A stretch of 64,000 nt of DNA from Dromiciops gliroides (Eukaryota > Chordata > Mammalia > Microbiotheria > Microbiotheriidae). This document shows positions 1-45,431 of this stretch, one piece after another (the first letter of the stretch is position 1; each line of letters opens with the position of its first letter). The notes beneath the pieces were generated by a model. It did no database searches. It saw only the letters and a program-made list of their open reading frames with translations, and had not been told where the DNA came from. The stretch lies in the NCBI RefSeq assembly GCF_019393635.1, contig NC_057867.1:62689492-62753491 (forward strand). Reading direction: 5' to 3'. Both the position numbers and the translations under genes were made by a program.

Positions 1-239
1 TGGCAGCTGCTGGGCTGTAGTAGGTGAGGCAAAGGGAAGAGTCAAAGATGATAATCAAGTTCCCAGTGTTCTCTGAATCCCTTCCAGCTCTAAATTACAC
101 ATTCTTGCTGGCCTGAAGCTTCTGTGGGTAAGGTCTCTTGTGCTTTTCTTTTGTCTCCAGATTTGAGCCATGTGTACACACGTAGTTTGCAAATGCCTTA
201 ACATTTAGTAATGCTTAGTAACACTCTTCCCTCTCCCTT

Positions 240-470
240 CATCTCCATCCCACTTCGAGTCATTTGCCAAATCTGATCAGTGCAACCTCTGCAACATCTC
301 TTGCATTTGTCCCCTTTTCTCCTTTCAGCTGACCATGACCCTATTACAGCCCTGAATCACCTCTCACCGAGGCTATTAGAATCACTTCCTTGTTGTTCTC
401 CCTGCTTAAAAGATCTCTTTTCCAATCCATCTTCCACACAACCACCAAATTAATATTCCGAAGACATAGG
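240..470 (+). mobile_element. L2-like LINE remnant
   Basis: Diverged text in the order typical of L2 (CAACATCTCTTGCATTTGTC, then a pyrimidine-rich run and CCAATCCATCTTCCACACAA) marks an old L2 3' region in sense. Boundaries are approximate. Confidence 0.5.
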
Positions 471-689
471 TCTGCAGATGTTTCTTAAATTCAACATGTA
501 TAAAATGGAATTACTTATCTTCTCCTCTCCCCCTAAAAAAGCCACCCCTCGAACCTATCTTGCCTATTTCAGCTGAGGACACTGCTATCTTTTCAGTCAC
601 TCACATTTACAGTTTCACAGTCATTCTCATTATTCCTCCCCATAGCCAGTCACAGGTTCAGAAAAAATCAGCTTTATAAGTACGATATT

Positions 690-1355
690 GAAGTGACATG
701 GTTAGCAATAGCTATGAAAAGTACTGAGAGCTTTTAGCGGACTCCAGGGTCAATATGAGTCAGTAGTGTGTGTTGTGGTAACCATAAAAGTTAATGTGAT
801 CTGGGGCTCCAGGAAAAGAAGTATAACTTGCGGGCAGAAGCGGGTGATAGACCGTCTTTCTGCTTTGCCTCAGAGTGTTGTACTTGGTTTTGAGCACCAC
901 AGTTGAGGAAGCATGTTGACTAACTAGAGAGTGTTCAGAAGGGAACGTTCAGGATGGGGAATTGGCCTTAAAACACATGAGAATTGGTTGGAAAAAAATG
1001 TGGGAATGTTTAACCTGGAGAAGAAAAAATTGAGAAGGAATATGTGCTAGTTACCTTCACGTATCTGAAAGACTGACTGTCATGTGGGAAAGTATTCGAG
1101 TTGTTCCATGTGGTTCCTGAGAACCAGCACCAAGAGCAATGCATGGAAGTTGCCAAAAGGAAGATTGAGACTTGCTATCAGGGGAAAAATTCCTAATAAT
1201 GAGATTTCATCAAAACTAGAAGGGGTTACATTGGAGGTCTTTGAGCAGAATCTGAATGATCGCTCCTCAAATATGTGATGATGGGAATTCCTTTGAGTAG
1301 CTTGGGCTACATGGCCACTGAAGTCCCTCCCAGGGCTAAGATTCTGGGAGTCTTG
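690..1355 (+). mobile_element. L3/CR1-like LINE remnant
   Basis: The order of motifs (GTTTAACCTGGAGAAGAAAA, then GCATGGAAGTTGCCAAAAGG, then GGAGGTCTTTGAGCAGA) follows the 3' end of an L3/CR1 element in sense. It is heavily diverged and has no long open frame. Confidence 0.65.
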
Positions 1356-1641
1356 CTCATTCCACTGCTTAAAAATTGTCATTGGCTCTCTTTTGCAGCT
1401 GAGATCACATACAAATTCTTCAGCTTCACATTAAAAACTCTCTAAAACCTGGCTCCACCAGCATTTATATGCTTGATACATATTATTTGGTGGAATTACC
1501 CTGTGTATGCTCTTCCATCCAGCTAAATGGGCCTACTGGCTCATTTCCATTTGATAGTCCATCTCTGTGCCCTTACACAACCTGGCCTTGCCTTAAATAT
1601 GCATTCTTTTCTCACCTCCACCTCTTAAAATCATTAGCTCT

Positions 1642-1790
1642 GGGGCAGCTAGATGGCGCAATGGATAGAGCACCGGCCCTGGAGTCAGGAGTACCTGGGT
1701 TCAAATCCAGTTTCAGACACTTAACACTTACTAGCTGTGTGACCCTGGGCAAGTCACTTAACCCCAATTGCCTCACTAAAAAAAAAAAAA
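1642..1790 (+). mobile_element. tRNA-derived marsupial SINE
   Basis: This is a full-length SINE with GGGGCAGCTAGATGGCGCAA head, internal GGTTCAAATCC box and an A tail. It is flanked by the target-site duplication TCATTAGCTCT (1631-1641, 1791-1801). Confidence 0.95.
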
Positions 1791-1930
1791 TCATTAGCTC
1801 TAAGACTCAACTCTTAGTACTATCTCCTATGTGACTTATTTCACTCTTTCCCTTCTTAAATTACTTTTATATTTTGTTTACATTTTGTGTTCCTCCTCTC
1901 TCCCCACCCTCCATTAGAATCTAAGTTCCT

Positions 1931-2083
1931 GGGGCGGCTAGGTGGCGCAGTGGATAAAGCACTGGCCCTGGATTCAGGAGGACCTGAGTTCAAATCCGGC
2001 CTCAGACACTTGACACTTACTAGCTGTGTGACCCTGGGCAAGTCACTTAACCCCCATTGCCCCGCAAAAAAAAAAAAAAAAAA
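1931..2083 (+). mobile_element. tRNA-derived marsupial SINE
   Basis: Full-length copy with a 19-base A tail and TSD TCTAAGTTCCT on both sides. It lies 180 bases upstream of the MTMR1 exon at 2267. Confidence 0.95.
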
Positions 2084-2266
2084 TCTAAGTTCCTCAAAGG
2101 CTGGGACTTTTTTCATCTTTGTATGCCCATGTAACATGATCTGGAATTGTTATATAGTTATTAGAGGTATCAATTTATTTCCTTGTTCCAATCTTATTCG
2201 ATAATTCTTGTGTATATCATGAAAATGTGGAAGAGAAATTGATTTGTTTTTCCATTTATCTTCCAG

Positions 2267-2443
2267 GGTGTGAATACAAAAACTATATCTTTATGGTCTT
2301 ATATCAACAGCCAGCTGGATGAGTTTTCCAATCCCTTCTATGTGAATTATGAAAACCATGTTTTATATCCTGTTGCCAGCCTGAATCATTTGGAATTATG
2401 GGTAAACTATTATGTCCGATGGAATCCACGAATGAGACCTCAG
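2267..2443 (+). CDS. MTMR1: MTMR1 penultimate coding exon (end of phosphatase domain)
   Basis: This 177-base exon holds 59 whole codons between a pyrimidine-rich acceptor ending TTCCAG and a donor CAG|GTATTG. It encodes the conserved C-terminal end of the myotubularin phosphatase domain, with segments such as [33 protein letters not shown] and [12 protein letters not shown]. From family knowledge, myotubularins remove the 3-phosphate from PI3P and PI(3,5)P2 on endosomal membranes; the catalytic CX5R loop lies in an upstream exon outside the window. The residues fit MTMR1 better than MTMR2 or MTM1 ([10 protein letters not shown] and [14 protein letters not shown], as I remember the paralogues). 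Both ends are phase 0, so it joins in frame to the exon at 13743. No damage is visible. The exon begins at GGT, 3 bases before the GTG-initial open frame. Confidence 0.95.
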
Positions 2444-3467
2444 GTATTGTGGGGGTATCATTGATTTTTTTTTAAAAGCATTTCTCTTGCTTTCTAGTAA
2501 AAATAGTATTTAAAAAGTACATATGATAAACATTGACATATAATGATGGTGAAAATTTGCTTCTCTTCTCTCATTTTTGAGGGATCTTTTATTTGTTCTG
2601 CTGATCTTGACAAGGTATTTTCTGATAGTACACACTAACTCACACTTTATGTACTAATCTCAACATTGTTGTTATTTTCAGTAGCTGTGAGTGTATTGTT
2701 TAGGAGTTTACCAGGGATCTATACTATTCTGTTAGGAATGTTTTTTAAGTGACTGTGCTTAGGTATTTAGATTTCTCTGTTATCTCATCCAAGCCTTCTT
2801 ATCCTATATAAGTGCTATATAACATGATTCATCCCTTACTAGGTATTGTGTTTGAACCTTGATTGTCTTGCTTTATATAATGCTATCCACTAGAGGAGGT
2901 GAAGAGTGGGAGGAGAGTAATGCAGAAAGTATTTGAGTACCTCAAATATGTATAATATTTGTATATTAGATTTGTATAATATGAAACAACTATATTTGAA
3001 ATGGTCTGACAGGTTTGTATAAATAGTTTGTAAATTTGGTGGTGTATTTGTGATTCATGAAACAAGTACTTGCCTTTAAGAAATATTGAAAGATGTTTTT
3101 TTCCCTTAGATACTTAAAATTTCCCTCAGGGTAACAGAAAAATTAAATAATGGTCATTGCAGGGATAAGCAACCCTGGCAAGTACAGCCAGCCCAGTATG
3201 CCCATTTCTGGTTATTTGTCTCCTGCCACCCTAGGTTCCTGATGCCTTGCTACAATCCATTCCTCTGCTAAGACATATGTCCTGTTTTTTCTTGTTTCCT
3301 TCATTTTTATGTGTGTGGGGGAACAATAAGATCACAAATTGAATTTCCATTACCATTGCCTCTCAAAACGAGCTAATTTCTTTACATACATCTTTTCCTT
3401 CACTTGGCTTTGGGCTTACAAGATATGGAACATGTGTCAGTATCTTTTTGCTGTCATCATTGTCATT

Positions 3468-3644
3468 GTTGTTGTTGAGTTGTTTTCAGTCATGTCCAAC
3501 TCTCCGTGACCCCCATTTAGGGTTTTCTTGGCAAAGATACTGAAGTGTTTTGCCATTTCCTTCTCCAGCTCATTTGATAGATGAGGAACTGAGGCAAACA
3601 GGGTGAAGTGACTTGCCCAGGGTCACACAGCCAGTATGTGATTT
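3468..3644 (-). mobile_element. CORE-SINE (MAR1/MIR-like), antisense
   Basis: Motifs CATGTCCAACTCTCCGTGAC, GTTTTGCCATTTCC and CCCAGGGTCACACAGC are the reverse complement of the 3' half of a marsupial CORE-SINE. It is truncated at the tRNA-like head. Confidence 0.8.
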
Positions 3645-3777
3645 CATCAAAGTGGGTATGGATCATAAGCTATCCAAGCCTTTTTATTTTGTATAGCTCT
3701 TGCCCAGATCTTCTAAATCCTCTACAAGGGATCCATGAAACATGCTAGGGATCATCTCTTTGAAATTCTTTCACATC

Positions 3778-3970
3778 GGGCCAGCTAGGTGGCGCAGTGG
3801 ATAGAGCACCGGCCCTGGAGTCAGGAGGACCTGGGTTCAAATCCGACCTCAGACACTTAACACTTACTAGCTGTGTGACCCTGGGCAAGTCACTTAACCC
3901 CATTTGCCTCACTATAAATAAATAAACAAATTAATTAATTAATTAATTGATTGATTGATTGATTAATTAA
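3778..3970 (+). mobile_element. tRNA-derived SINE with ATTA/ATTG tail
   Basis: Full-length SINE whose tail has become (AATA), (ATTA) and (ATTG) tetranucleotide runs. TSD ATTCTTTCACATC lies at 3765-3777 and 3970-3982. Confidence 0.93.
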
Positions 3971-4020
3971 TTCTTTCACATCATTTAGATACCAATGGAA
4001 CATATAGGCAGTCCACCTCA

Positions 4021-4141
4021 GCCCTGGAGTCAGGATAACCTGAGTTCAAATCCAGCCTTAGACACTTAATACTTACTAGCTGTGTGACCCTAGGCAAGTC
4101 ACTTAACCCCAATTGCCTCACCAAAAAAAAAGAGAGAGAGA
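4021..4141 (+). mobile_element. 5'-truncated tRNA-derived SINE
   Basis: It begins inside the SINE at CCCTGGAGTCAGG and ends in a short A tail with an AG microsatellite. Confidence 0.85.
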
Positions 4142-5124
4142 GAATCTTGGGGTTATTGTTCATTTTCCCAATTGGAATCCAGCCCACTCTTTATTCCTCT
4201 TCATGTCTGGGCCCACTTAATTGTCCATCTGTGGTATTTGTCCAAGATATATGAATGATAGACCAGCGCCAAAGGTTGCCTATCCAACTGCATATCATAG
4301 TTTGGACAACAGGAATTCTTGATTTTTCTTCTACAGATAGGTCAAATTCTTTTGAGTGATTATAAATCTTATTTGGGAGGCTGTGAAATATTCAGGGGCT
4401 TGTTAGAAGCAGCACAGTATTACCTCAGGCAAGCAGATTACCTCACTATAGGTAGGCAGTCAACCCCTTTGCCATTTGGATTTTATGCTCGACATCCTCC
4501 CTGACAGCAGCAGATACCTTTGAGCATATCTCTAATTGTTTTATACTTCACTTTGTAGTAATAATCGGAGGATCATCAAAGCTATCTCTGTGGGATCCAA
4601 CAAGGAAACTTTACTTCTCTTACCACATACATGAGAAACACTTTGTTAGTGAGGAGTGTTTAAGACTGCATTTCGATCTACTCAATCAAATGCTTAAAAA
4701 AAAATTTAAACAATTAGAACAGAGCTTGTATTCTCTCTATTTTTCAGTCATTTGTGTTTATGTAAAGTTATGGTTCATTGTAGGTAGAGTATTGCACGTG
4801 AAATTCTTCCTGTTCTCTTCTCATATTTTCTTTAATAATGTCCTCTATACTCGGGTAGGTTATTCTGAGCTCTCATAGCTCAGTAGACATATGAGTTGGT
4901 AGCTACTGATACCCCATTGATTGATTGCCTTTGATGGTAGTAATAACATCTGTGATATTTTGAGATCACTCAGTCTCTTCCCCTCTTTCAGATAACTTGA
5001 GAGTCAATTTTTCAACACCCTCCAAACTGCTGCTTCTAGCACAGACTTCCTCTATGTATATTGCATACAGTTCAGATACTGTTACTCTCTCTTTTCTTTA
5101 GTACCACTTACACTTCTTGTGTAG

Positions 5125-5230
5125 TACCTTGAGAAGCTCATGGCATAGTGGATAAAGTGTTGTGCTCAAAATTAAGAACTGGGTTCAAGTCCTGCCTCTT
5201 GATCCATAATGTCTGGGAGGCCCTGGCAAA
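5125..5230 (+). mobile_element. MIR-like SINE remnant
   Basis: GGCATAGTGGATAAAG followed by GGGTTCAAGTCCTGCCTCTT is the diverged tRNA-like head of a MIR-type SINE. Confidence 0.5.
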
Positions 5231-5594
5231 CCTCAATGCAGGTCTGCATTAGTACAGAAGTTTGCTATAGCATCAAAGTCAAAGATCCAGTCAAACACTG
5301 TAGCATGTTGTAGTCCATGATTTTAGTATCCAATTGGGATGATGCCAGTGTCATTGATGGAGAAATTAGTTAGCTATAAATAGATGGACAGATCTTTTCC
5401 TGTTTTCATCTGTTGTCCTCCACATTTGATCTTTGAAGGCTCTTGGGACGATCTGGATTCATTAGGTCTTAGGCCAGTATTTCTGTCTTACACTTGTTTT
5501 ATAAGTCAGTACTATTGAAAATCTTCTCCTAACCTCCTACATAGAATTGTAAGGGTCTAAAATTCCAGCTAGTCTGTCTAAAATATCTAATGAG

Positions 5595-5742
5595 GGGGCA
5601 GCTAGGTAGCGCAGTAGATAGAGCACTGGCCCTGGATTCAGGAGGACCTGAGTTCAAATTTGACTTCAGACACTTAACACTTACTAGCTGTGTGACCCTG
5701 GGCAAGTCACTTAACCCCAATTGTCCCACAAAAAAAAAAATT
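5595..5742 (+). mobile_element. tRNA-derived marsupial SINE
   Basis: Full-length copy with TSD AAATATCTAATGAG (5581-5594 and 5743-5756). Confidence 0.95.
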
Positions 5743-6204
5743 AAATATCTAATGAGTGGTCACTATTAAATTAGAAGCTTTAGCAAGAGTTTAGACTTTT
5801 AAACATTTATTAAGGAGAATAAGAATTTGGTGAAGAGAGAGAGAGGCCTAGATTCAGTTGTCTATCTCGGGGAGCCAGTGTCTCCTGCTCCGCTCTCCAC
5901 GAGAGTCCTGACAAAAGAGAGAAAACCACCCCTCCTTCATCCCACAAGCCTCCTGTGAAACTGGGAACATCCCATCCACTCGCACACACACAGCTCCAAG
6001 CTAATTGGCTGGTAGCTTTGATAGACAGTACCCATGAGCAAACATCACTTCCTGATGCCAAGGAAAAGCTACATGGCTTGCCCTCAGACGCCTTCTCCTC
6101 ATGGCGGAGTTTTCCTACAGTAGCTCTCCAGCAGATGGTGTCATTCCAATCACTACAGGAGTTTGAAAATAAGTTTATATTCTAAGCTGGGGCTTCTATA
6201 TCAG

Positions 6205-6452
6205 TTGTTTTTCTGTCATTTAAGTTGTGTTCGACTCTTTTGTGACCTTGTTTGAGGTTTTCTTAGCAAAGATACTGGAGTGGTTTGCCATTTCCCTCTC
6301 CAACTCATTTTATAGTTGAGGAAACTGAGGCAAACAGAGTGAAGTGACTTGTCCAGGGTCACACAGCTAGGAAGTGTCTGAGGCCAGATTTGAACTTGGG
6401 TCTTCCTGACTCCAGGCCCAGCACTCTAGCCACTGTGCCACCTACCTGTCAT
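6205..6452 (-). mobile_element. CORE-SINE (MAR1-like), antisense
   Basis: A near-complete antisense copy: GTGTTCGACTCTTTTGTGAC tail side, GGTTTGCCATTTCCCTCTCC middle, then the reverse-complement tRNA-like head ending CCACTGTGCCACCTACCTGT. Confidence 0.85.
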
Positions 6453-8082
6453 ATTGGGATATGTGGCAAAAATCAAGCGTTCGCTGGCTCTGAGGCAGTT
6501 TCTCGGTTTTTGTTGTTCTCACTGTGGCAGTTTCTGTACATTGGTTAAGCTTTGTTTAAAAATGATTATGGTCCAATCAGCTCCTTTATCCATTTCTCAT
6601 TTTGTTACCTTTAGTCAAAATTGTCACTATTTTAATTGAACAGTATTTGTTTCTTCTACTTTGATCTTGATTTTTATTTCTGTGCTCTCAGAAATCAGTG
6701 GTCTTGACTAATATAGCTGATTTTGAAAGAACTCATGTTGGGAACCAGGCAGTTTACTATTAAGATATTATCAATTTGGTTTTGGAGGGATTTCGTTCAT
6801 TGTTCAAAATGGTCAGTGTCTCCTGACTTTCTTCAAAAAGCATGTGTGAGATGTAGATTTGAGTTTCTTATGTTGTCTGCCAGCCTTTTATTTCTTTCAT
6901 TGCTTAAACCTGACCCATATTTTTCATGGTAGTCTCCTATGCCCTCCTTTGCACTGAAATCACTGAGTGTTAAGTACATGTTAGATAATAATTTGGAGTT
7001 CTTATTGCGTTCTTCAGATAATTTCTCCACTTCATCTTCTGTAACAGATTAGTATAAAAACTGTGTCTATCTTTATGGTGATCTTTTTGCTTGTACTTAT
7101 GAGCACTGTAAGATAAGATGACCAAGAGTCCTAAGAAATGCTTGTTGTTGCTTTTGTGTATTTGATCAAATGAACTCTTATCAATTTTTATTTGTATTTC
7201 TGAGAACCTATGACCCTTTCTTCCATTTAGGTGCAACCTACTAATGGTTTCATTTAAGTTGTCCCTTTTGATATATTTCAATTCCTATAGTAGTATGCTA
7301 ATTCCATGGGCATTGAACAAGGATTTCACATTGAGTTCCAGTAGCCAAGTTAATGTCTCTAAATGGTCTGAAAGCTGTATGATTTTTTAGCACCTTTTTG
7401 CTAAATGTTACTGTAGAAGGAGGAAGCCTCACAGGACTAAGAGCCATTTGATATTTTTCTTTATTTCGTCCCTAACTTGCCAGCCTCCTGCTAATTTTGT
7501 CACTTGGACATGTTATAGTAGGTGTTAATTTCAGGGTGTAGATTAGAGTAGTTGATCGTGGAGGTCCTTTATAACTAAAATTCTATGAAATTAAATTATC
7601 TTTTATATCCCTAGTGCCTAACACAGTATCTTGTACCTAGACACTTAACAGACTGTGTTGCACTGGTTGGTTTTTGGGTGGTTTTGGGGGGGGGGCATCA
7701 GCTTAATCTGAGAGGAGTTGAAAGCACACTGTACCATAGCCACTCCTACTTTTTTGCTTATGTCTTTATTTGTACCCGTTTTATTTTCTATTATGTGTAT
7801 TATGTTTTGGTTCTAGGCCAATAGTAGTGGAAATTGACTTTAACTAGCCCTGTACTCTATGTTTAAGAATGGTGTACTTCTTAGTCACGCTAGGCAGGTT
7901 TTTAGAGATGTCAGTTGATATTACCATTAACTAATTCCATACTTGTATGTATATAAGAACTTCATTTCCTTCCTTTTTCATTTTAGTGATGAAAATGGTT
8001 ACATGCTTCAAGGTTATGTATCTTTTAGTTCTTTAGAAGAAAGGTACTGCCTAAAAGGGAGGGTGTGGAGATGAAAATATGA

Positions 8083-18775: not shown

Positions 18776-18864
<89 letters not shown>

Positions 18865-18889
18865 CCCCCCTCTCCCCCCCCCCCTTTCC
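18776..18889. repeat. compound (TG)n(TC)n(C)n microsatellite
   Basis: About 22 TG units, then about 22 TC units, then C-runs broken by TCT. The TC/C part is a mirror-type polypyrimidine tract that could form triplex DNA. Confidence 0.97.
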
Positions 18890-23054: not shown

Positions 23055-23115
23055 TTAAATCTTTAGAGTCTCTTCCAAGGGTTTCTCTGCAGACTGGGTT
23101 GGCAAGGCTGAAAAT
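23055..23115 (-). CDS. CD99L2: CD99L2 terminal coding exon
   Basis: On the - strand, acceptor TTTTTTGGTCTTCCTAG precedes this exon, which completes an AGA codon begun in the previous exon and encodes FSALPTQSAEKPLEETLKI then TAA. The TQSAE block and final I match the cytoplasmic C-terminus of CD99L2 as I remember it from eutherians, where a proline-rich run follows TQSAE; here the run is replaced by KPLEETLK. The upstream intron is almost entirely the purine-rich array (polypyrimidine on the + strand). A candidate branch-point sequence, TTACTGC, lies upstream of the acceptor. Confidence 0.92.
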
Positions 23116-26100
23116 CTAGGAAGACCAAAAAAGAGAAGCAGTAAGTAATGTCACTCTGACTCCTCTCACTCTTCACTCTCTCATTCTGCTCTGTACTGAT
23201 TTCTCTCAGTCTTATCCCTCTCTGTCCCCCCTCTTTCTGACTCTTGACCCAATCCCCTCTCCATTCACTAACACTTCTTCCTCTCTTCTTTCCAACTCAC
23301 TCCTCCATATCTATCTCTCCTCTCACTCTCATTCCTCTCTTTCTCTCCTCTTTCTAACTCTAACCTCAATCCTGTCTCTATAACTCTCTCCCCTCTAACT
23401 CCTCTGTCTCTCCCCTCTAACTCCTCTCACTCTCAACCCCTTCTCCCTCTCCACTCAATCCCCTCTGTCTTCTCACTGCCTCTCCTCTCCATCTTGTCCC
23501 TCTTTCTCTCTCCCCTCAATCCTGTCTCTATAATTACTCTCCACTCAATCCCCACTCTCCTCTGTCTTCTCACTGCCTCTCCTGTCTCTCCCCTCTAACT
23601 CCTCTCACTCTCAACCCTTTCTACCTCTACACTCAATCCTCTCTCTCTTCACTAACTCTCCTCTCCATCTTGTCCCTCTTTCTAACTCTCTACCCTAACT
23701 CTCCACTCAATCCCCTCTGTCTTCTCACTGCCTCTCCTCTCCCTCCTGTCTCTATAACTCTCCTCTCAATCTTGTCCCTCTTTCTACCTCTACACTCAAT
23801 CCTCTCTCTCTTCACTAACTCTCCTCTCCATCTTGTCCCTCTTTCTAACTCTACACCCTCTAACTCCTGTCTTCTCACTGCCTCTCCCTTCTAACTCCTC
23901 TCACTCTCTACCCTCTAACTCCTGTCTCTCCCCTCTACCTCCTCTCACTCTCAACCCTTTCTACCTCTACAATAACTCTCCTCTGTATCTTGTCCCTCTT
24001 TCTAACTCTACACCCTCTAACTCCTGTCTTCTCACTGCCTCTCCTGTCTCTCCCTTCTAACTCCTCTCACTCTCATCACTTTCTAACTCTCTACCCTCAA
24101 TCCTCTCTCTATAATTACTCTCCACTCAATCCCCTCTGTCTTCACTAACTCTCCTCTCCATCTTGTCCCTCTTTCTAACTCTCCACCCTCTCACTCTACC
24201 CTCAATCCTCTCCCCTCAATCCCCTCTGTCTTCACTAACTCTCCTCTGTATCTTGTCCCTCTTTCTAACTCTCCACTAACTCTCCTCTGTCTTCTCACTG
24301 CCTCTCCTGCCTCTCCCCTCTAACTCCTCTCACTCTCATCACTTTCTAATTACTCTCCAACTCTCTACCCTAACTCTCCTCTGTATCTTGTCCCTCTTTC
24401 TAACTCTCCACTCAATCCCCTCTCTCTTCACTAACTCTCTCCTGTCTCTATAACTCTCCTCTCAATCTTGTCCCTCTTTCTAACTCTCCACCCTCTAACT
24501 CTTCTGTCTCTCCCCTCAATCCCCTCTCTCTTCACTAACTCTCCTCTGTCTTCTTTCTCACTGCCTCTCCCCTCTAACTCCTCTCACTCTCAACCCTTTC
24601 TACCTCTACACTCAATCCTCTCTCTCTCTTCACTAACTCTCCTCTGTCTTCTCACTGCCTCTCCCTCCTCTTTCTAACTCTTCCTAACTCCTCTCACTCT
24701 CAACCCTTTCTAACTCTCCTCTCCCTCCTGTCTCTCTTTCTAACTCTCTACCCTAACTCTCCTCTGTCTTCTCACTGCCTCTCCCTTCTAACTCCTCTCA
24801 CTCTCATCACTTTCTAACTCTCTACCCTCTAACTCTACCCTCAATCCTCTCTCTCTTCACTAACTCTCCACCCTTTCTATCTCTCTACCCTCTCACTCTT
24901 CTGTCTCTCCCCTCAATCCTGTCTCTATAATTACTCTCCACTCAATCCCCTCTGTCTTCACTAACTCTCTACCCTCTAACTCCTGCCTCTCCCCTCTAAC
25001 TCCTCTCACTCTCATCACTTTCTAACTCTCCTCTCCCTCCTGTCCCTCTTTCTCTCTACCCTCTACCTCCTCTCACTCTCAACCCTTTCTACCTCTACAA
25101 TAACTCTCCACTCAATCCTCTCTCTCTGTTCACTAACTCTCTACCCTCTCACTCTTCTGTCTCTCCTCTGTCTTCTCACTGCCTCTCCTGTCTCTCCCCT
25201 CTAACTCCTCTCACTCCCTCCCCTTTCTAACTCTCCACTCAATCCCCTCTCTCTTCACTAACTCTCCTCTGTCTTCTTTCTCACTGCCTCTCCTCTCACT
25301 CTCATCACTTTCTAACACTCTCCATTCAATCCCCTCTGTCTTCACTAACTCTCCACCCTCTCACTCTTCTCACTCTCAACCCTTTCTATCTCTCTACCCT
25401 CTCACTCTTCTGTCTCTCCACTCAATCCTCTCTCTATAATTACTCTCCACTCAATCCCCTCTGTCTTCACTAACTCTCCTCTCAATCTTGTCCCTCTTTC
25501 TAACTCTCTACCCTCTAACTCCTGTCTCTCCCCTCTACCTCCTCTCACTCTCAACCCTTTCTACCTCTACAATAACTCTCCTCTGTATCTTGTCCCTCTT
25601 TCTAACTCTTCTGTCTCTCCCCTCAATCCCCTCTCTCTTCACTAACTCTCCTCTGTCTTCTTTCTCACTGCCTCTCCCCTCTAACTCCTCTCACTCTCAA
25701 CCCTTTCTACCTCTACACTCAATCCTCTCTCTCTCAACCCTTTCTAACTCTCCACCCTCTAACTCTTCTGTCTCTCTCTTCACTAACTCTCCTCTGTCTT
25801 CTCACTGCCTCTCCTGCCTCTCCCCTCAATCCTGTCTCTATAATTACTCTCCACTCAATCCCCTCTCTCTTCACTAACTCTCCTCTGTCTTCTCACTGCC
25901 TCTCCCTTCTAACTCCTCTCACTCTCATCACTAACTCTCCACCCTCTAACTCTTCTCACTCTCAACCCTTTCTATCTCTCTACCCTCTCACTCTTCTGTC
26001 TCTCCCCTCAATCCTGTCTCTATAATTACTCTCCACTCAATCCCCTCTGTCTTCACTAACTCTCCTCTCAATCTTGTCCCTCTTTCTAACTCTCCACCCT

Positions 26101-29100
26101 CTCACTCTTCTCACTCTCAACCCTTTCTATCTCTCTACCCTCTCACTCTTCTGTCTCTCCACTCAATCCTCTCTCTATAATTACTCTCCACTCAATCCCC
26201 TCTGTCTTCACTAACTCTCCTCTCCATCCTGTCCCTCTTTCTAACTCTCTACCCTCTAACTCTACCCTCAATCCTCTCTTCACTAACTCTCCTCTCAATC
26301 TTGTCCCTCTTTCTAACTCTCTACCCTCTAACTCCTGTCTCTCCCCTCTACCTCCTCTCACTCTCAACCCTTTCTACCTCTACAATAACTCTCCTCTGTA
26401 TCTTGTCCCTCTTTCTAACTCTCCACTCAATCCCCTCTCTCTTCACTAACTCTCTCCTGTCTCTATAACTCTCCTCTCAATCTTGTCCCTCTTTCTCTCT
26501 ACCCTCTACCTCCTCTCACTCTCAACCCTTTCTACCTCTACAATAACTCTCCTCTGTATCTTGTCCCTCTTTCTAACTCTTCTGTCTCTCCCCTCAATCC
26601 CCTCTCTCTTCACTAACTCTCCTCTGTCTTCTTTCTCACTGCCTCTCCTCTCACTCTCATCACTTTCTAACACTCTCCATTCAATCCCCTCTGTCTTCAC
26701 TAACTCTCCTCTCAATCTTGTCCCTCTTTCTAACTCTCCACCCTCTCACTCTTCTGTCTCTCCACTCAATCCTCTCTCTATAATTACTCTCCACTCAATC
26801 CCCTCTGTCTTCACTAACTCTCCTCTCCATCCTGTCCCTCTTTCTAACTCTCTACCCTCTAACTCTACCCTCAATCCTCTCTCTTCACTAACTCTCCTCT
26901 CAATCTTGTCCCTCTTTCTAACTCTCTACCCTCTAACTCCTGTCTCTCCCCTCTACCTCCTCTCACTCTCAACCCTTTCTACCTCTACAATAACTCTCCT
27001 CTGTATCTTGTCCCTCTTTCTAACTCTCCACTCAATCCCCTCTCTCTTCACTAACTCTCTCCTGTCTCTATAACTCTCCTCTCAATCTTGTCCCTCTTTC
27101 TCTCTACCCTCTACCTCCTCTCACTCTCAACCCTTTCTACCTCTACAATAACTCTCCTCTGTATCTTGTCCCTCTTTCTAACTCTCCACTCAATCCTCTC
27201 TCTCTGTTCACTAACTCTCTACCCTCTCACTCTCAACCCTTTCTACCTCTACAATAACTCTCCTCTGTATCTTGTCCCTCTTTCTAACTCTTCTGTCTCT
27301 CCCCTCAATCCCCTCTCTCTTCACTAACTCTCCTCTGTCTTCTTTCTCACTGCCTCTCCCCTCTAACTCCTCTCACTCTCAACCCTTTCTACCTCTACAC
27401 TCAATCCTCTCTCTCTCAACCCTTTCTAACTCTCCACCCTCTAACTCTTCTGTCTCTCTCTTCACTAACTCTCCTCTGTCTTCTCACTGCCTCTCCTGCC
27501 TCTCCCCTCTAACTCCTCTCACTCTCATCACTTTCTAACTCTCTCCCCTCAATCCTGTCTCTATAATTACTCTCCACTCAATCCCCTCTCTCTTCACTAA
27601 CTCTCCTCTGTCTTCTCACTGCCTCTCCCTTCTAACTCCTCTCACTCTCATCACTTTCTAACTCTCTACCCTCTAACTCTACCCTCAATCCTCTCTCTCT
27701 TCACTAACTCTCCACCCTCTAACTCTTCTCACTCTCAACCCTTTCTATCTCTCTACCCTCTCACTCTTCTGTCTCTCCCCTCAATCCTGTCTCTATAATT
27801 ACTCTCCACTCAATCCCCTCTGTCTTCACTAACTCTCTACCCTCTAACTCCTGCCTCTCCCCTCTAACTCCTCTCACTCTCATCACTTTCTAACTCTTCT
27901 CTCTACCCTCTACCTCCTCTCACTCTCAACCCTTTCTACCTCTACAATAACTCTCCACTCAATCCCCTCTCTCTTCACTAACTCTCCTCTCAATCTTGTC
28001 CCTCTTTCTATCTCTCCCCTCTACCTCCTCTCACTCTCATCACTTTCTAACTCTCTACCCTAACTCTCCACTCAATCCCCTCTCTTCACTAACTCTCTCC
28101 TGTCTCTATAACTCTCCTCTCAATCTTGTCCCTCTTTCTAACTCTCCACCCTCTCACTCTTCTGTCTCTCCACTCAATCCTCTCTGTCTTCACTAACTCT
28201 CCTCTCCATCCTGTCCCTCTTTCTAACTCTCTACCCTAACTCTCCACTCAATCCCCTGTCTTCACTAACTCTCCTCTGTCTTCTCACTGCCTCTCCTCTC
28301 CCTCCTGTCTCTATAACTCTCCTCTCAATCTTGTCCCTCTTTCTAACTCTCCACCCTTTCTATCTCTCTACCCTCTAACTCCTGTCTCTCCCCTCTACCT
28401 CCTCTCACTCTCAACCCTTTCTACCTCTACAATAACTCTCCTCTGTATCTTGTCCCTCTTTCTAACTCTCTACCCTCTAACTCTTCTGTCTCTCCCCTCA
28501 ATCCCCTCTCTCTTCACTAACTCTCCTCTGTCTTCTCACTGCCTCTCCTGTCTCTCCCCTCTAACTCCTCTCACTCTCAACCCTTTCTACCTCTACACTC
28601 AATCCTCTCTCTCTTCACTAACTCTCCTCTGTCTTCTCACTGCCTCTCTTCTCCCTCCTGTCTCTATAACTCTCCTCTCAATCTTGTCCCTCTTTCTAAC
28701 TCTCCACCCTCTAACTCTTCTCACTCTCAACCCTTTCTATCTCTCTACCCTCTCACTCTTCTGTCTCTATAATTACTCTCCACTCAATCCCCTCTCTCTT
28801 CACTAACTCTCCTCTGTCTTCTCACTGTCTCTCCTCTTTCTAACTCTTCTGTCTCTCCCCTCAATCCTGTCTCTCTTTCTAACTCTCTACCCTCTAACTC
28901 CTCTCACTCTCATCACTTTCTAACTCTTCTGTCTCTCCCCTCAATCCTGTCTCTATAATTACTCTCCATTCAATCCCCTCTGTCTTCACTAACTCTCCTC
29001 TCAATCTTGTCCCTCTTTCTAACTCTCCACCCTCTCACTCCTGTCTCTCCCCTCTACCTCCTCTCACTCTCATCACTTTCTAACTCTCTACCCTAACTCT

Positions 29101-29978
29101 CCTCTGTATCTTGTCCCTCTTTCTAACTCTCCACTCAATCCCCTCTCTTCACTAACTCTCTCCTGTCTCTATAACTCTCCTCTCAATCTTGTCCCTCTTT
29201 CTAACTCTCCACCCTCTCACTCTTCTGTCTCTCCACTCAATCCTCTCTGTCTTCACTAACTCTCCTCTCCCTCCTGTCTCTATAACTCTCCTCTCAATCT
29301 TGTCCCTCTTTCTAACTCTCCACCCTTTCTATCTCTCTACCCTCTAACTCCTGTCTCTCCCCTCTACCTCCTCTCACTCTCAACCCTTTCTACCTCTACA
29401 ATAACTCTCCTCTGTATCTTGTCCCTCTTTCTAACTCTCCACCCTCTCACTCTCATCACTTTCTAACTCTCTACCCTCTAACTCTTCTGTCTCTCCCCTC
29501 AATCCCCTCTCTCTTCACTAACTCTCCTCTCAATCTTGTCCCTCTTTCTAACTCTCCACCCTCTAACTCTTCTCACTCTCAACCCTTTCTATCTCTCTAC
29601 CCTCTCACTCTTCTGTCTCTATAATTACTCTCCACTCAATCCCCTCTCTCTAACTCTTCTGTCTCTCCCCTCAATCCTGTCTCTCTTTCTAACTCTCTAC
29701 CCTCTAACTCCTCTCACTCTCATCACTTTCTAACTCTTCTGTCTCTCCCCTCAATCCTGTCTCTCTTTCTAACTCTCTACCCTGTAACTCCACCCTCAAT
29801 CCTCTCTCTCTTCACTAACTCTCCTCTCAATCTTATCCCTCTAACTACTCTCATCCCTGTCTTTCTTTCCCCTTTCTAACTCTACACTGAATCCTTTCTC
29901 TATACCTGTCCTCTCAATCTTATCACTCTTTCTAACTCTCCCTGTCCTTACTCTAGACAATTTCAAGTATCCTCTTAC
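23116..29978 (-). other. CD99L2: last intron of CD99L2, filled by the array
   Basis: The intron is 6,863 bases, with donor AAG|GTAAGAG and acceptor CCTAG. Only about 40 bases at the acceptor side and about 20-40 at the donor side lie outside the low-complexity array. The pre-mRNA would therefore carry an almost pure GA-rich intron. Reading through the donor gives AGG TAA, so retention would end the protein after EKTSR. Confidence 0.9.
23155..29960. repeat. 6.8 kb polypyrimidine (CT-rich) mosaic tandem array
   Basis: The + strand is almost wholly C and T with isolated A, and by eye every G sits in TG (TGT, TGC). No CpG was noticed. The array is built from recurring words of about 10-35 bases, such as CTAACTCTCC, CACTCAATCCCCTCTGTCTT, CTTGTCCCTCTTTCTAAC, CTCTCACTCTCAACCCTTTC and CTGTCTCTATAATTACTC, shuffled in varying order. 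Longer blocks recur nearly exactly (26161-26580 with 26761-27182; about 25585-25830 with 27269-27510), which shows internal duplication. The ends are degenerate (23155-23400; 29840-29960). Open frames across it start with TTG in the word CTTGTCCC and are by-products of a stop-poor repeat. I do not recognise it as a named satellite. Confidence 0.95.
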
Positions 29979-43780: not shown

Positions 43781-43925
43781 GGGGCGGCTAGGTGGTGAAG
43801 TGGATAAAGCACCAGCCCTGGATTCAGGAGTACCTGAGTTCAAATCTGGCCTCAGACACTTGACACTTACTGGCTATGAGACCCTGGGCAAGTCACTTAA
43901 CCCCAATTGCCTCACCAAAAAAAAA
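43781..43925 (+). mobile_element. tRNA-derived marsupial SINE
   Basis: Full-length copy GGGGCGGCTAGGTGGTGAAG with A tail, 15 bases ahead of a second copy in the same direction. Confidence 0.94.
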
Positions 43926-43939
43926 GAATATTGTATTAT

Positions 43940-44099
43940 GGGGGGCAGCTAGGTGGCACAGTGGATAAAGCACCGGCCCTGGATTCAGGAGGACCTGAGT
44001 TCAAATCTGACCTCAGACACTTGACACTTACTAGCTGTGTGACCTTGGGCAACTCACTTAACCCTCATTGCCCAACCAAAAAACAAACAAACAAAAAAA
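43940..44099 (+). mobile_element. tRNA-derived marsupial SINE
   Basis: Full-length copy with (AAAC)n tail; flanks AGAATATTGTATTA and AGAATACTGCATTA are its target duplication. Confidence 0.94.
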
Positions 44100-45311: not shown

Positions 45312-45431
45312 GTTGAATGCTAAAGCAAAATTTCTTTTGTTGATAGGAAATGTAACTGGAGACTGCTCCAATGAGTGCCATTGCAAGGGCACTGGCTATG
45401 CCGGCAATCGTCCCAGTTTCTGCTACTGTTC
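45312..45431 (-). CDS. CD99L2: CD99L2 transmembrane exon
   Basis: This 120-base - strand exon follows acceptor TTTCTTTGGCAG and ends at donor C|GTAAGTG. It encodes TVAETGTIAGIASALAMALI followed by GAVSSYISYQQKKFCFSIQ. The hydrophobic helix IAGIASALAMALIGAVSSYI is small-residue rich, followed by the basic stop-transfer QQKK. This is the best-conserved part of CD99L2 and identifies the gene. From family knowledge, CD99L2 is a type I surface glycoprotein that helps leukocytes cross endothelium. Both ends are phase 1, so the exon is symmetric. Confidence 0.97.

What the first reader, a model, noticed from the sequence alone, without database searches (positions are those of the whole stretch)
23155..29960. 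A 6.8 kb CpG-free polypyrimidine array occupies virtually the whole last intron of CD99L2
The sequence shows an intron of 6,863 bases in which about 99 percent is C/T-rich mosaic repeat with G only after T. A tract this long could form triplex (H-DNA) or RNA-DNA hybrids, stall polymerase, and make a GA-rich intron able to bind splicing proteins. It ends only tens of bases from both exons. I know of no named satellite with these words. Functional effects are inference.
Basis: partly seen in the sequence, partly recalled or inferred. Interest (0 to 1): 0.75.

Follow-up and report, generated by a model that had tools for sequence, protein, structure and literature searches.

The report
Scrambled repeat filling a CD99L2 intron
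Almost the whole last intron of a gene called CD99L2 is one 6.8-kilobase block of reshuffled short C/T-rich words that is probably related to two other blocks on the same chromosome; it looks like a fast-rearranging repeat rather than a triplex-forming tract, and any effect on the gene is unproven.

Summary
The array is real. The CD99L2 last intron runs 23116-29978 on the minus strand (6,863 nt); repeated words span 23159-29941. It has no CpG, and 182 of 184 G follow T. "Polypyrimidine" overstates it: 82% C+T, median pure C/T run 6 nt, longest 24, which weakens the triplex (H-DNA) idea. The sense strand is G/A-rich (GC skew +0.88) with 8 R-loop-forming motifs, against 1 elsewhere on the minus strand and 0 on the plus strand of the window, so R-loops are the better non-B candidate.

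It is not an ordinary tandem array. Units of 30, 15 and 31 nt recur but no 30-nt register survives. Copies differ mostly by word switches (518) rather than indels (139) or substitutions (57). The edges are decayed and the interior holds a 460-nt copy at 99.1% identity, so it rearranged recently.

One 23-mer occurs 17 times in 3.3 Gb, all here. Two other loci on the same 85-Mb contig probably share its vocabulary, though some word tests fail. The census is incomplete: the genome search answered 3 of 50 requests. Function is unproven.

The parts
45312..45431 (-). CD99L2 transmembrane exon
   Evidence: AG/GT borders and open frame continuous with the next exons; Pfam CD99L2 7e-29 for the spliced 82 aa
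29979..30048 (-). CD99L2 penultimate exon (70 nt)
   Evidence: splice borders and frame
23116..29978 (-). last intron of CD99L2, 6,863 nt
   Evidence: GTAAGAGG donor, TCCTAG acceptor, frame kept across the junction
23155..29960 (+). word-mosaic C/T-rich array (G/A-rich in the transcript); repeated 10-mers span 23159-29941
   Evidence: composition, k-mers, self-alignment
23155..23380 (+). decayed left edge of the array
   Evidence: 0.88 of 12-mers single-copy in the first 200-bp bin and 0.27 in the second, against 0-0.16 in the bins from 23555 to 29555
29790..29960 (+). decayed right edge of the array
   Evidence: last bin (from 29755) 0.63 single-copy 12-mers
26123..26580 (+). longest near-identical internal duplication, copy 1
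   Evidence: 99.13% over 460 nt with 26726-27185, 2 mismatches and 2 gaps
26726..27185 (+). longest near-identical internal duplication, copy 2
23141..23145 (-). only YTNAY branch-point-like site in the last 90 nt of the intron, CTTAC; its A is at 23142, 27 nt from the intron end and outside the array
23055..23115 (-). coding part of the CD99L2 last exon, stop codon 23057-23055

Best explanation
The last CD99L2 intron holds a mosaic minisatellite. A small vocabulary of C/T-rich words (many about 15 or 30-31 nt, such as CTCTCCTCTCAATCTTGTCCCTCTTTCTAA) has been repeatedly duplicated, deleted and re-joined at very short matches or none. The words stay intact while their order and the period are scrambled. 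Growth has consumed the interior of the intron up to near the splice signals. The transcript strand is G/A-rich with few C, so transcription makes an RNA favourable for R-loops. I infer that R-loop or slippage-associated breakage keeps the array rearranging, and that the gene tolerates it, the intron having no AATAAA/ATTAAA that could end the transcript early. It is probably one of at least three related arrays on one chromosome, very likely the X. SHOWN: anatomy, composition, rearrangement signature, near-identical duplication, shared vocabulary above most controls. INFERRED: the joining mechanism, R-loop formation, tolerance by the gene, common descent, the X assignment.
For: Exons, frame and Pfam match. 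188 TAA/TTA-delimited units, 83 distinct, commonest lengths 30, 15 and 31. Differences between copies: 518 switches, 139 indels, 57 substitutions among 714 maximal exact repeat pairs; 49, 19 and 8 among 76 interval junctions. No 30-nt register: autocorrelation excess at lag 30 is 0.007. In simulations from a 30-nt founder (4 runs per setting, 24 runs) the excess was -0.013 to 0.005 with no homology needed, -0.013 to 0.12 at 4 nt, 0.065 to 0.231 at 6 nt and 0.23 to 0.47 at 8-12 nt. Near-identical copy, 99.1% over 460 nt. Decayed edges. R-loop motifs: 8 in the intron, 1 elsewhere on the minus strand, 0 on the plus strand. One 23-mer: 17 hits in the genome, all in the array. Shared vocabulary with C7:52.95 Mb and C7:75.80 Mb: 6-mer excess correlation 0.30-0.31 or 0.20-0.26 with other borders, against a maximum of 0.164 and a median of -0.06 in 18 other C/T-rich loci. 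Mean local alignment score 37.2 against 30.9 (sd 1.0) for order-5 simulated L014, and 35.3 against 33.1 (sd 1.0) for L013.
Against: The simulations assume a 30-nt founder; another founder would change what loss of register implies. They do not fit everything: the longest exact copy in the array is 307 nt, against 432-1,037 in the 16 runs, and its best autocorrelation at any lag (0.116 excess) lies above all four homology-blind runs (0.045-0.088) though within the 4-nt runs (0.054-0.144). The junction-overlap statistic (median 43 nt) looked like evidence of homologous exchange, but homology-blind simulations gave medians of 51.5-96, so it is uninformative. Vocabulary sharing fades at longer words: order-3-corrected 8-mer correlation is 0.05 with L013, 0.005 with L014 and -0.10 with its GA arm, and exact shared 12-16-mers fall below an order-6 Markov null. 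The R-loop call follows from composition. Donor-like GTRAG sites are not depleted (83 against 88.3 shuffled), so tolerance is not explained by their lack. No reads, RNA or other species were available.
Confidence: 0.6

Rival explanations
1. It is a polypyrimidine H-DNA tract like PKD1 intron 21 and acts through triplex formation and replication stalling.
For: Long, strand-asymmetric, intronic; some short mirror words; a review passage says that non-mirror and imperfect sequences can form triplexes too (PMC9483843, passages seen).
Against: 82% C+T against 97% quoted for PKD1 intron 21; longest pure run 24 nt, median 6; 6 purine mirror repeats with arms of 10 nt or more, one and the same word, in 6.9 kb.
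Confidence: 0.1
2. The array regulates splicing of the last exon: the G/A-rich RNA recruits SR proteins or hnRNPs and controls retention of the intron, which would end the protein at the intron start.
For: 188 GGAGA and 98 GAAGA sites, and runs of three or more G at 218 against 157.4 shuffled; retention reads an in-frame stop directly at the donor (...EKTSR*) and drops the last exon's tail.
Against: GGAGA and GAAGA counts equal the shuffled expectation; no RNA data; C-terminal loss by retention is generic for introns.
Confidence: 0.15
3. The array length or order is an assembly artefact.
For: Repetitive array, no reads available here; internal copies up to 307 nt exact.
Against: Correctly ordered intact exons on both sides; the longest near-identical copy is only 460 nt and has differences; decay at both edges is expected of a real array.
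Confidence: 0.07
4. The likeness to the two other C7 arrays is convergence of low-complexity C/T-rich DNA, not common descent.
For: Low complexity; 64-65% alignment identity; exact shared 12-16-mers below an order-6 null and weak sharing of 8-mers; the flank of L014 was not found at CD99L2 in the 51 rows, and the L013-to-window rows shown (25) are nearly all one SINE-like piece.
Against: 6-mer excess and alignment scores exceed reversed and simulated controls and, for 6-mers, all 18 other-locus controls; exact shared stretches of 18 nt or more: 28 with L013 and 7 with L014, while none containing an A was found in 8 of 8 other loci tried.
Confidence: 0.25

Closest known systems
Mosaic or complex tandem repeats (PMC10118999, PMC10502081; passages seen)
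   Same: Several different units combined in one array that period finders resolve badly.
   Different: The passages seen describe runs of one unit followed by runs of another, mostly with units under 10 nt; here units of 15-57 nt are interleaved, over 6.8 kb.
Cryptic simplicity (Tautz, Trick and Dover 1986; seen only as a reference-list entry, content recalled)
   Same: Scrambled arrangement of a few motifs without clean tandem order.
   Different: Words here are long and nearly exact, and the block is kilobases long.
Minisatellites or VNTRs such as those in ABCA7 and WDR7 (named in passages of PMC10502081; their intronic place is recalled)
   Same: Long arrays of units of tens of bases within genes.
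   Different: No constant unit or register here; polymorphism not testable.
PKD1 intron 21 polypyrimidine tract (passages of PMC9483843 and PMC11696556)
   Same: Very long strand-asymmetric C/T-rich tract within one intron.
   Different: PKD1: 97% pyrimidine on the coding strand, 23 mirror repeats, 38 G4 motifs in the intron. Here: 82%, pyrimidine on the template strand, few mirrors, 0 three-tetrad G4 motifs with loops up to 7 nt.

Membership tests
H-DNA-forming polypyrimidine tract (PKD1 intron 21 type) | near-pure pyrimidine strand (97%) | tested here: not met
   82% C+T, longest pure run 24 nt
H-DNA-forming polypyrimidine tract (PKD1 intron 21 type) | many homopurine mirror repeats | tested here: not met
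   6 with arms of 10 nt or more, all one word, and 24 with arms of 8 or more, in 6,863 nt
Minisatellite or VNTR | head-to-tail copies of one unit in constant register | tested here: not met
   83 distinct units of 188; lag-30 excess 0.007
Minisatellite or VNTR | length variation between individuals | not testable with these tools
   one assembly only
Mosaic tandem repeat | several distinct units within one array | tested here: met
Widespread satellite | exact copies of its words elsewhere in the genome | tested here: not met
   one word only was answered: an exact 23-mer, 17 of 17 hits inside the array
Widespread satellite | diverged copies at many loci | tested here: inconclusive
   whole-array DNA search: 44 rows, 40 of 997 first-look candidates scored. 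I fetched 20 regions; two shared the vocabulary and 18 did not reach their 6-mer level. The other rows and candidates were not examined.
R-loop-forming sequence (QmRLFS model) | G-cluster initiation zone, then 100-2000 nt with at least 40% G on the non-template strand | tested here: met
   8 hits in the intron by my own re-implementation (100-nt steps); rule read in passages of PMC4489302
R-loop-forming sequence (QmRLFS model) | R-loop present in cells | not testable with these tools
   needs DRIP or S9.6 data

The most novel reading that the evidence does not exclude
A chromosome-restricted family of scrambled C/T-word arrays on the X of this genome. It has spread its vocabulary between distant loci, rearranges by joining at 0-4 nt matches, and in one case has replaced nearly all but the splice signals of an intron of a gene, making that intron a natural multi-kilobase R-loop substrate.
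Probability: 0.25. Interest if true: 0.65.

Novelty: new variant of a known kind. Interest (0 to 1): 0.45.

Why it matters
If right, it shows that a repeat can lose its period but keep its words, so a period finder reports only a scatter of partial arrays (120 overlapping rows). It also shows that such a repeat can take over an intron up to near the splice signals while exons and splice sites stay intact. It offers a natural test of whether G-rich, C-poor transcripts drive repeat rearrangement through R-loops, and of whether related arrays on one chromosome exchange sequence.

Tried and rejected
Junction homology: the 43-nt median overlap (a switch-only version is) first looked like proof of homologous exchange. 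Homology-blind simulations gave even larger overlaps, so I dropped that inference.

Simulation: one search was a single run per setting (its 20-nt-homology run collapsed to 240 nt); I rely.

Shared exact k-mers between arrays: 12-16-mers lie below order-6 Markov nulls; 20-mers are 25 against 14 for L013 and 2 against 10 for L014. I report this against the kinship claim.

A shared left border between CD99L2 and the two other arrays was looked for; the best matches of the 285-nt left edge lie inside those arrays, not at their start.

Splicing motifs: no enrichment of GGAGA and GAAGA beyond composition. G-quadruplex: 0 three-tetrad motifs with loops up to 7 nt, 2 with loops up to 12. Rfam: 0 matches in the window at gathering threshold. 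Inverted repeats inside the array and array words elsewhere in the window: none by BLAST.

Ten paper searches. Those aimed at this array (7, 14, 15, 51) listed 1, 20 of 746, 1 and 0 papers; none of the listed titles or abstract openings concerns it. That is no proof of absence from print, since the library lacks most subscription papers. One search was read as a listing only (12 of 33).

Genome census by array words: 50 requests, 3 answers.

Full report
OBSERVATION. The window's minus strand carries the end of CD99L2. Exons at 45431-45312 and 30048-29979 and the last exon from 23115 splice in one frame to an 82-aa stretch ending at a stop at 23057-23055, and this matches Pfam CD99L2 with E = 7e-29. 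The last intron is 23116-29978, 6,863 nt. The C/T-rich array fills 23155-29960, and repeated 10-mers reach from 23159 to 29941. The one branch-point-like site in the last 90 nt, with its A 27 nt from the intron end, lies just outside the array. So the array has filled the interior and left little beyond the splice signals.

COMPOSITION. On the plus strand the array is C 44.4%, T 37.8%, A 15.2%, G 2.7%, with 0 CpG, and G follows T in 182 of 184 cases. It is therefore not a polypyrimidine tract in the strict sense: 892 pure C/T runs have a median of 6 nt and a maximum of 24. The G-after-T pattern rests on 19 distinct 7-mer contexts, the top three holding 126 of 184 G, so it looks like a founder effect of few words.

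STRUCTURE. Tandem Repeats Finder reports 120 overlapping rows with periods from 8 to 447 and no dominant one. Splitting after TAA or TTA before CTC gives 188 units, 83 distinct, most often 30, 15 and 31 nt. The array parses into 284 LZ phrases, against 434-457 for three order-7 Markov versions and 1,175 for a same-length flank. Among 714 maximal exact repeat pairs of 30 nt or more, 518 end in a switch to unrelated words, 139 in an indel of up to 40 nt and 57 in a substitution. Pairs are not independent; at the level of 76 interval junctions the counts are 49, 19 and 8. Self-BLAST finds no inverted copies, no array words elsewhere in the window, and as longest copy 26123-26580 against 26726-27185 at 99.13%. 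Single-copy 12-mers rise to 0.88 and 0.63 in the two edge bins. Together this describes an array whose interior rearranged recently.

HOW IT REARRANGES. Starting from a 30-nt founder, duplication and deletion at matches of 8-12 nt kept the 30-nt register (lag-30 excess 0.23-0.47 in 12 runs). Matches of 6 nt gave 0.065-0.231, 4 nt gave -0.013 to 0.12, and no homology gave -0.013 to 0.005 (4 runs each); the array shows 0.007. The switch/indel/substitution shares of the array (0.73/0.19/0.08) fall within the range of the homology-blind runs (switch 0.62-0.83, indel 0.10-0.27, substitution 0.07-0.13). I conclude, with the founder assumption stated, that joining used very short matches or none, as in slippage or template switching. 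Misfits: the array's longest exact copy (307 nt) is shorter than in all 16 runs (432-1,037), and its strongest autocorrelation (0.116) exceeds all four homology-blind runs. Overlap at junctions (median 43 nt) did not discriminate, because homology-blind simulations gave 51.5-96.

NON-B POTENTIAL. In the transcript the intron has 3,031 G, 2,584 A, 1,054 T and 194 C, with GC skew +0.88. By my re-implementation of the QmRLFS rule (rule read afterwards in passages of PMC4489302) there are 8 R-loop-forming motifs in the intron sense strand, 0 antisense, 1 elsewhere on the minus strand and 0 on the plus strand of the window. Three-tetrad G4 motifs: 0 with loops up to 7 nt, 2 with loops up to 12. Pure-purine mirror repeats with arms of 10 nt or more: 6, all one word. 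PKD1 intron 21 is quoted as 97% pyrimidine with 23 mirror repeats (PMC9483843 passages), so this array is unlike it in the triplex respect. In the intron AATAAA/ATTAAA number 0 (0.5 expected); GTAAG 2 against 17, but GTRAG as a whole 83 against 88.3; GGAGA and GAAGA are at the shuffled level. If the intron were retained, translation would stop at the donor.

ELSEWHERE IN THE GENOME. The window lies at C7:62689492-62753491 of an unnamed 3.30-Gb, 17-contig assembly. A 23-mer of the array occurs 17 times, all inside it. The whole array as DNA query gave 44 rows, itself included (40 of 997 first-look candidates scored). I fetched 20 regions, mostly from the upper part of that list. Eighteen of these I use as C/T-rich controls; several are plain CT microsatellites. 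Two on the same contig differ. L013 (C7:52948500-52957300) holds an array of about 6.5 kb with an inserted SINE-like element (27 CpG in the 6,982-nt segment measured). L014 (C7:75801800-75809000) holds a C/T arm of about 4.2 kb followed by a G/A arm of about 1.5 kb, inside an inverted repeat whose outer flanks match at 92% over 498 nt. These two loci share flanks with each other at 84-88%. A search with 800 nt of that flank gave 51 rows; the four strongest are at these two loci and the other rows cover only parts of the query, mostly what I read as a SINE piece and a microsatellite (40 of 640 candidates scored). CD99L2 is not among those rows.

KINSHIP TEST. Order-2-corrected 6-mer excess correlates 0.31, 0.30 and 0.30 between CD99L2 and L013, L014 C/T arm and L014 G/A arm (nine controls there -0.02 to 0.13; simulated about 0, sd 0.04-0.05, highest 0.13; reversed 0.01-0.08). 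In one search, with other borders and 18 controls, it is 0.257, 0.239 and 0.204, against a control maximum of 0.164 (L018) and median of -0.06. With order-3 correction the 7-mer values are 0.09, 0.05 and -0.03 (control maximum 0.026) and the 8-mer values 0.05, 0.005 and -0.10 (control maximum -0.023), so the G/A arm fails both. 8-mers in excess (z above 3) in all three arrays: 19, against 9 in a reversed control. Mean local alignment of 45 pieces of 150 nt: 35.3 for L013 against 33.1 (sd 1.0, highest of 6 34.2) for order-5 simulation, and 37.2 for L014 against 30.9 (sd 1.0, highest 31.6); reversed 26.1 and 25.4. Exact shared 12-16-mers fall below an order-6 null; exact stretches of 18 nt or more number 28 (L013) and 7 (L014), against 22 and 4 in one order-4 simulation each, and none containing an A in 8 of 8 other loci tried. 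I hold common origin as probable (about 0.75), not proven.

VERDICT. A real, large, recently active word-mosaic repeat in a gene's last intron: a new variant of the mosaic minisatellite kind, probably with relatives on the same chromosome. H-DNA is unlikely, R-loops are plausible, and function is unproven. That contig C7 (85.16 Mb) is the X, and that the animal is a marsupial, are inferences from CD99L2 being X-linked in human (title of PMC12910011), the contig size and recalled SINE sequence; no call names the organism.

Noticed in passing
L014 (C7:75801800-75809000), 168-6854: Large inverted repeat: a C/T-rich arm of about 4.2 kb followed by a G/A-rich arm of about 1.5 kb with outer flanks matching at 92% over 498 nt; it could extrude as a hairpin of word-mosaic DNA.
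   Followed up: partly
L013 (C7:52948500-52957300): Related array of about 6.5 kb with a SINE-like insertion (L013 about 1380-1540) and a duplicated array-start/flank block at its high end (84% over 375 nt); shares flanks with L014.
   Followed up: partly
L033 1420-1890 (-) and 2227-2814 (+): Open frames that I recall as L1 ORF2 C-terminus-like, about 9 kb from the L013 array.
   Followed up: no
window 18776-18889: Compound microsatellite (GT)22 (TC)22 with a C-rich end, including a pure C/T run of 72 nt: the longest in the window and longer than any in the array.
   Followed up: no
window 43781-44083 and other places: Dense SINE-like copies: 24 of the 25 rows shown (list cut there) match the SINE-like insert of L013 at 82-94%; one pair lies in tandem at 43781-44083.
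   Followed up: partly
L017 (C5:284681000-284684700): A 2.5-kb array, 14% A, of TCTCTCTCTCAA-type words with one G in 2,511 nt; it does not share the CD99L2 vocabulary.
   Followed up: partly
L028 (C2:10838800-10841800): C/T-rich array with 42 CpG in 1,012 nt, the highest density among the 20 fetched.
   Followed up: no
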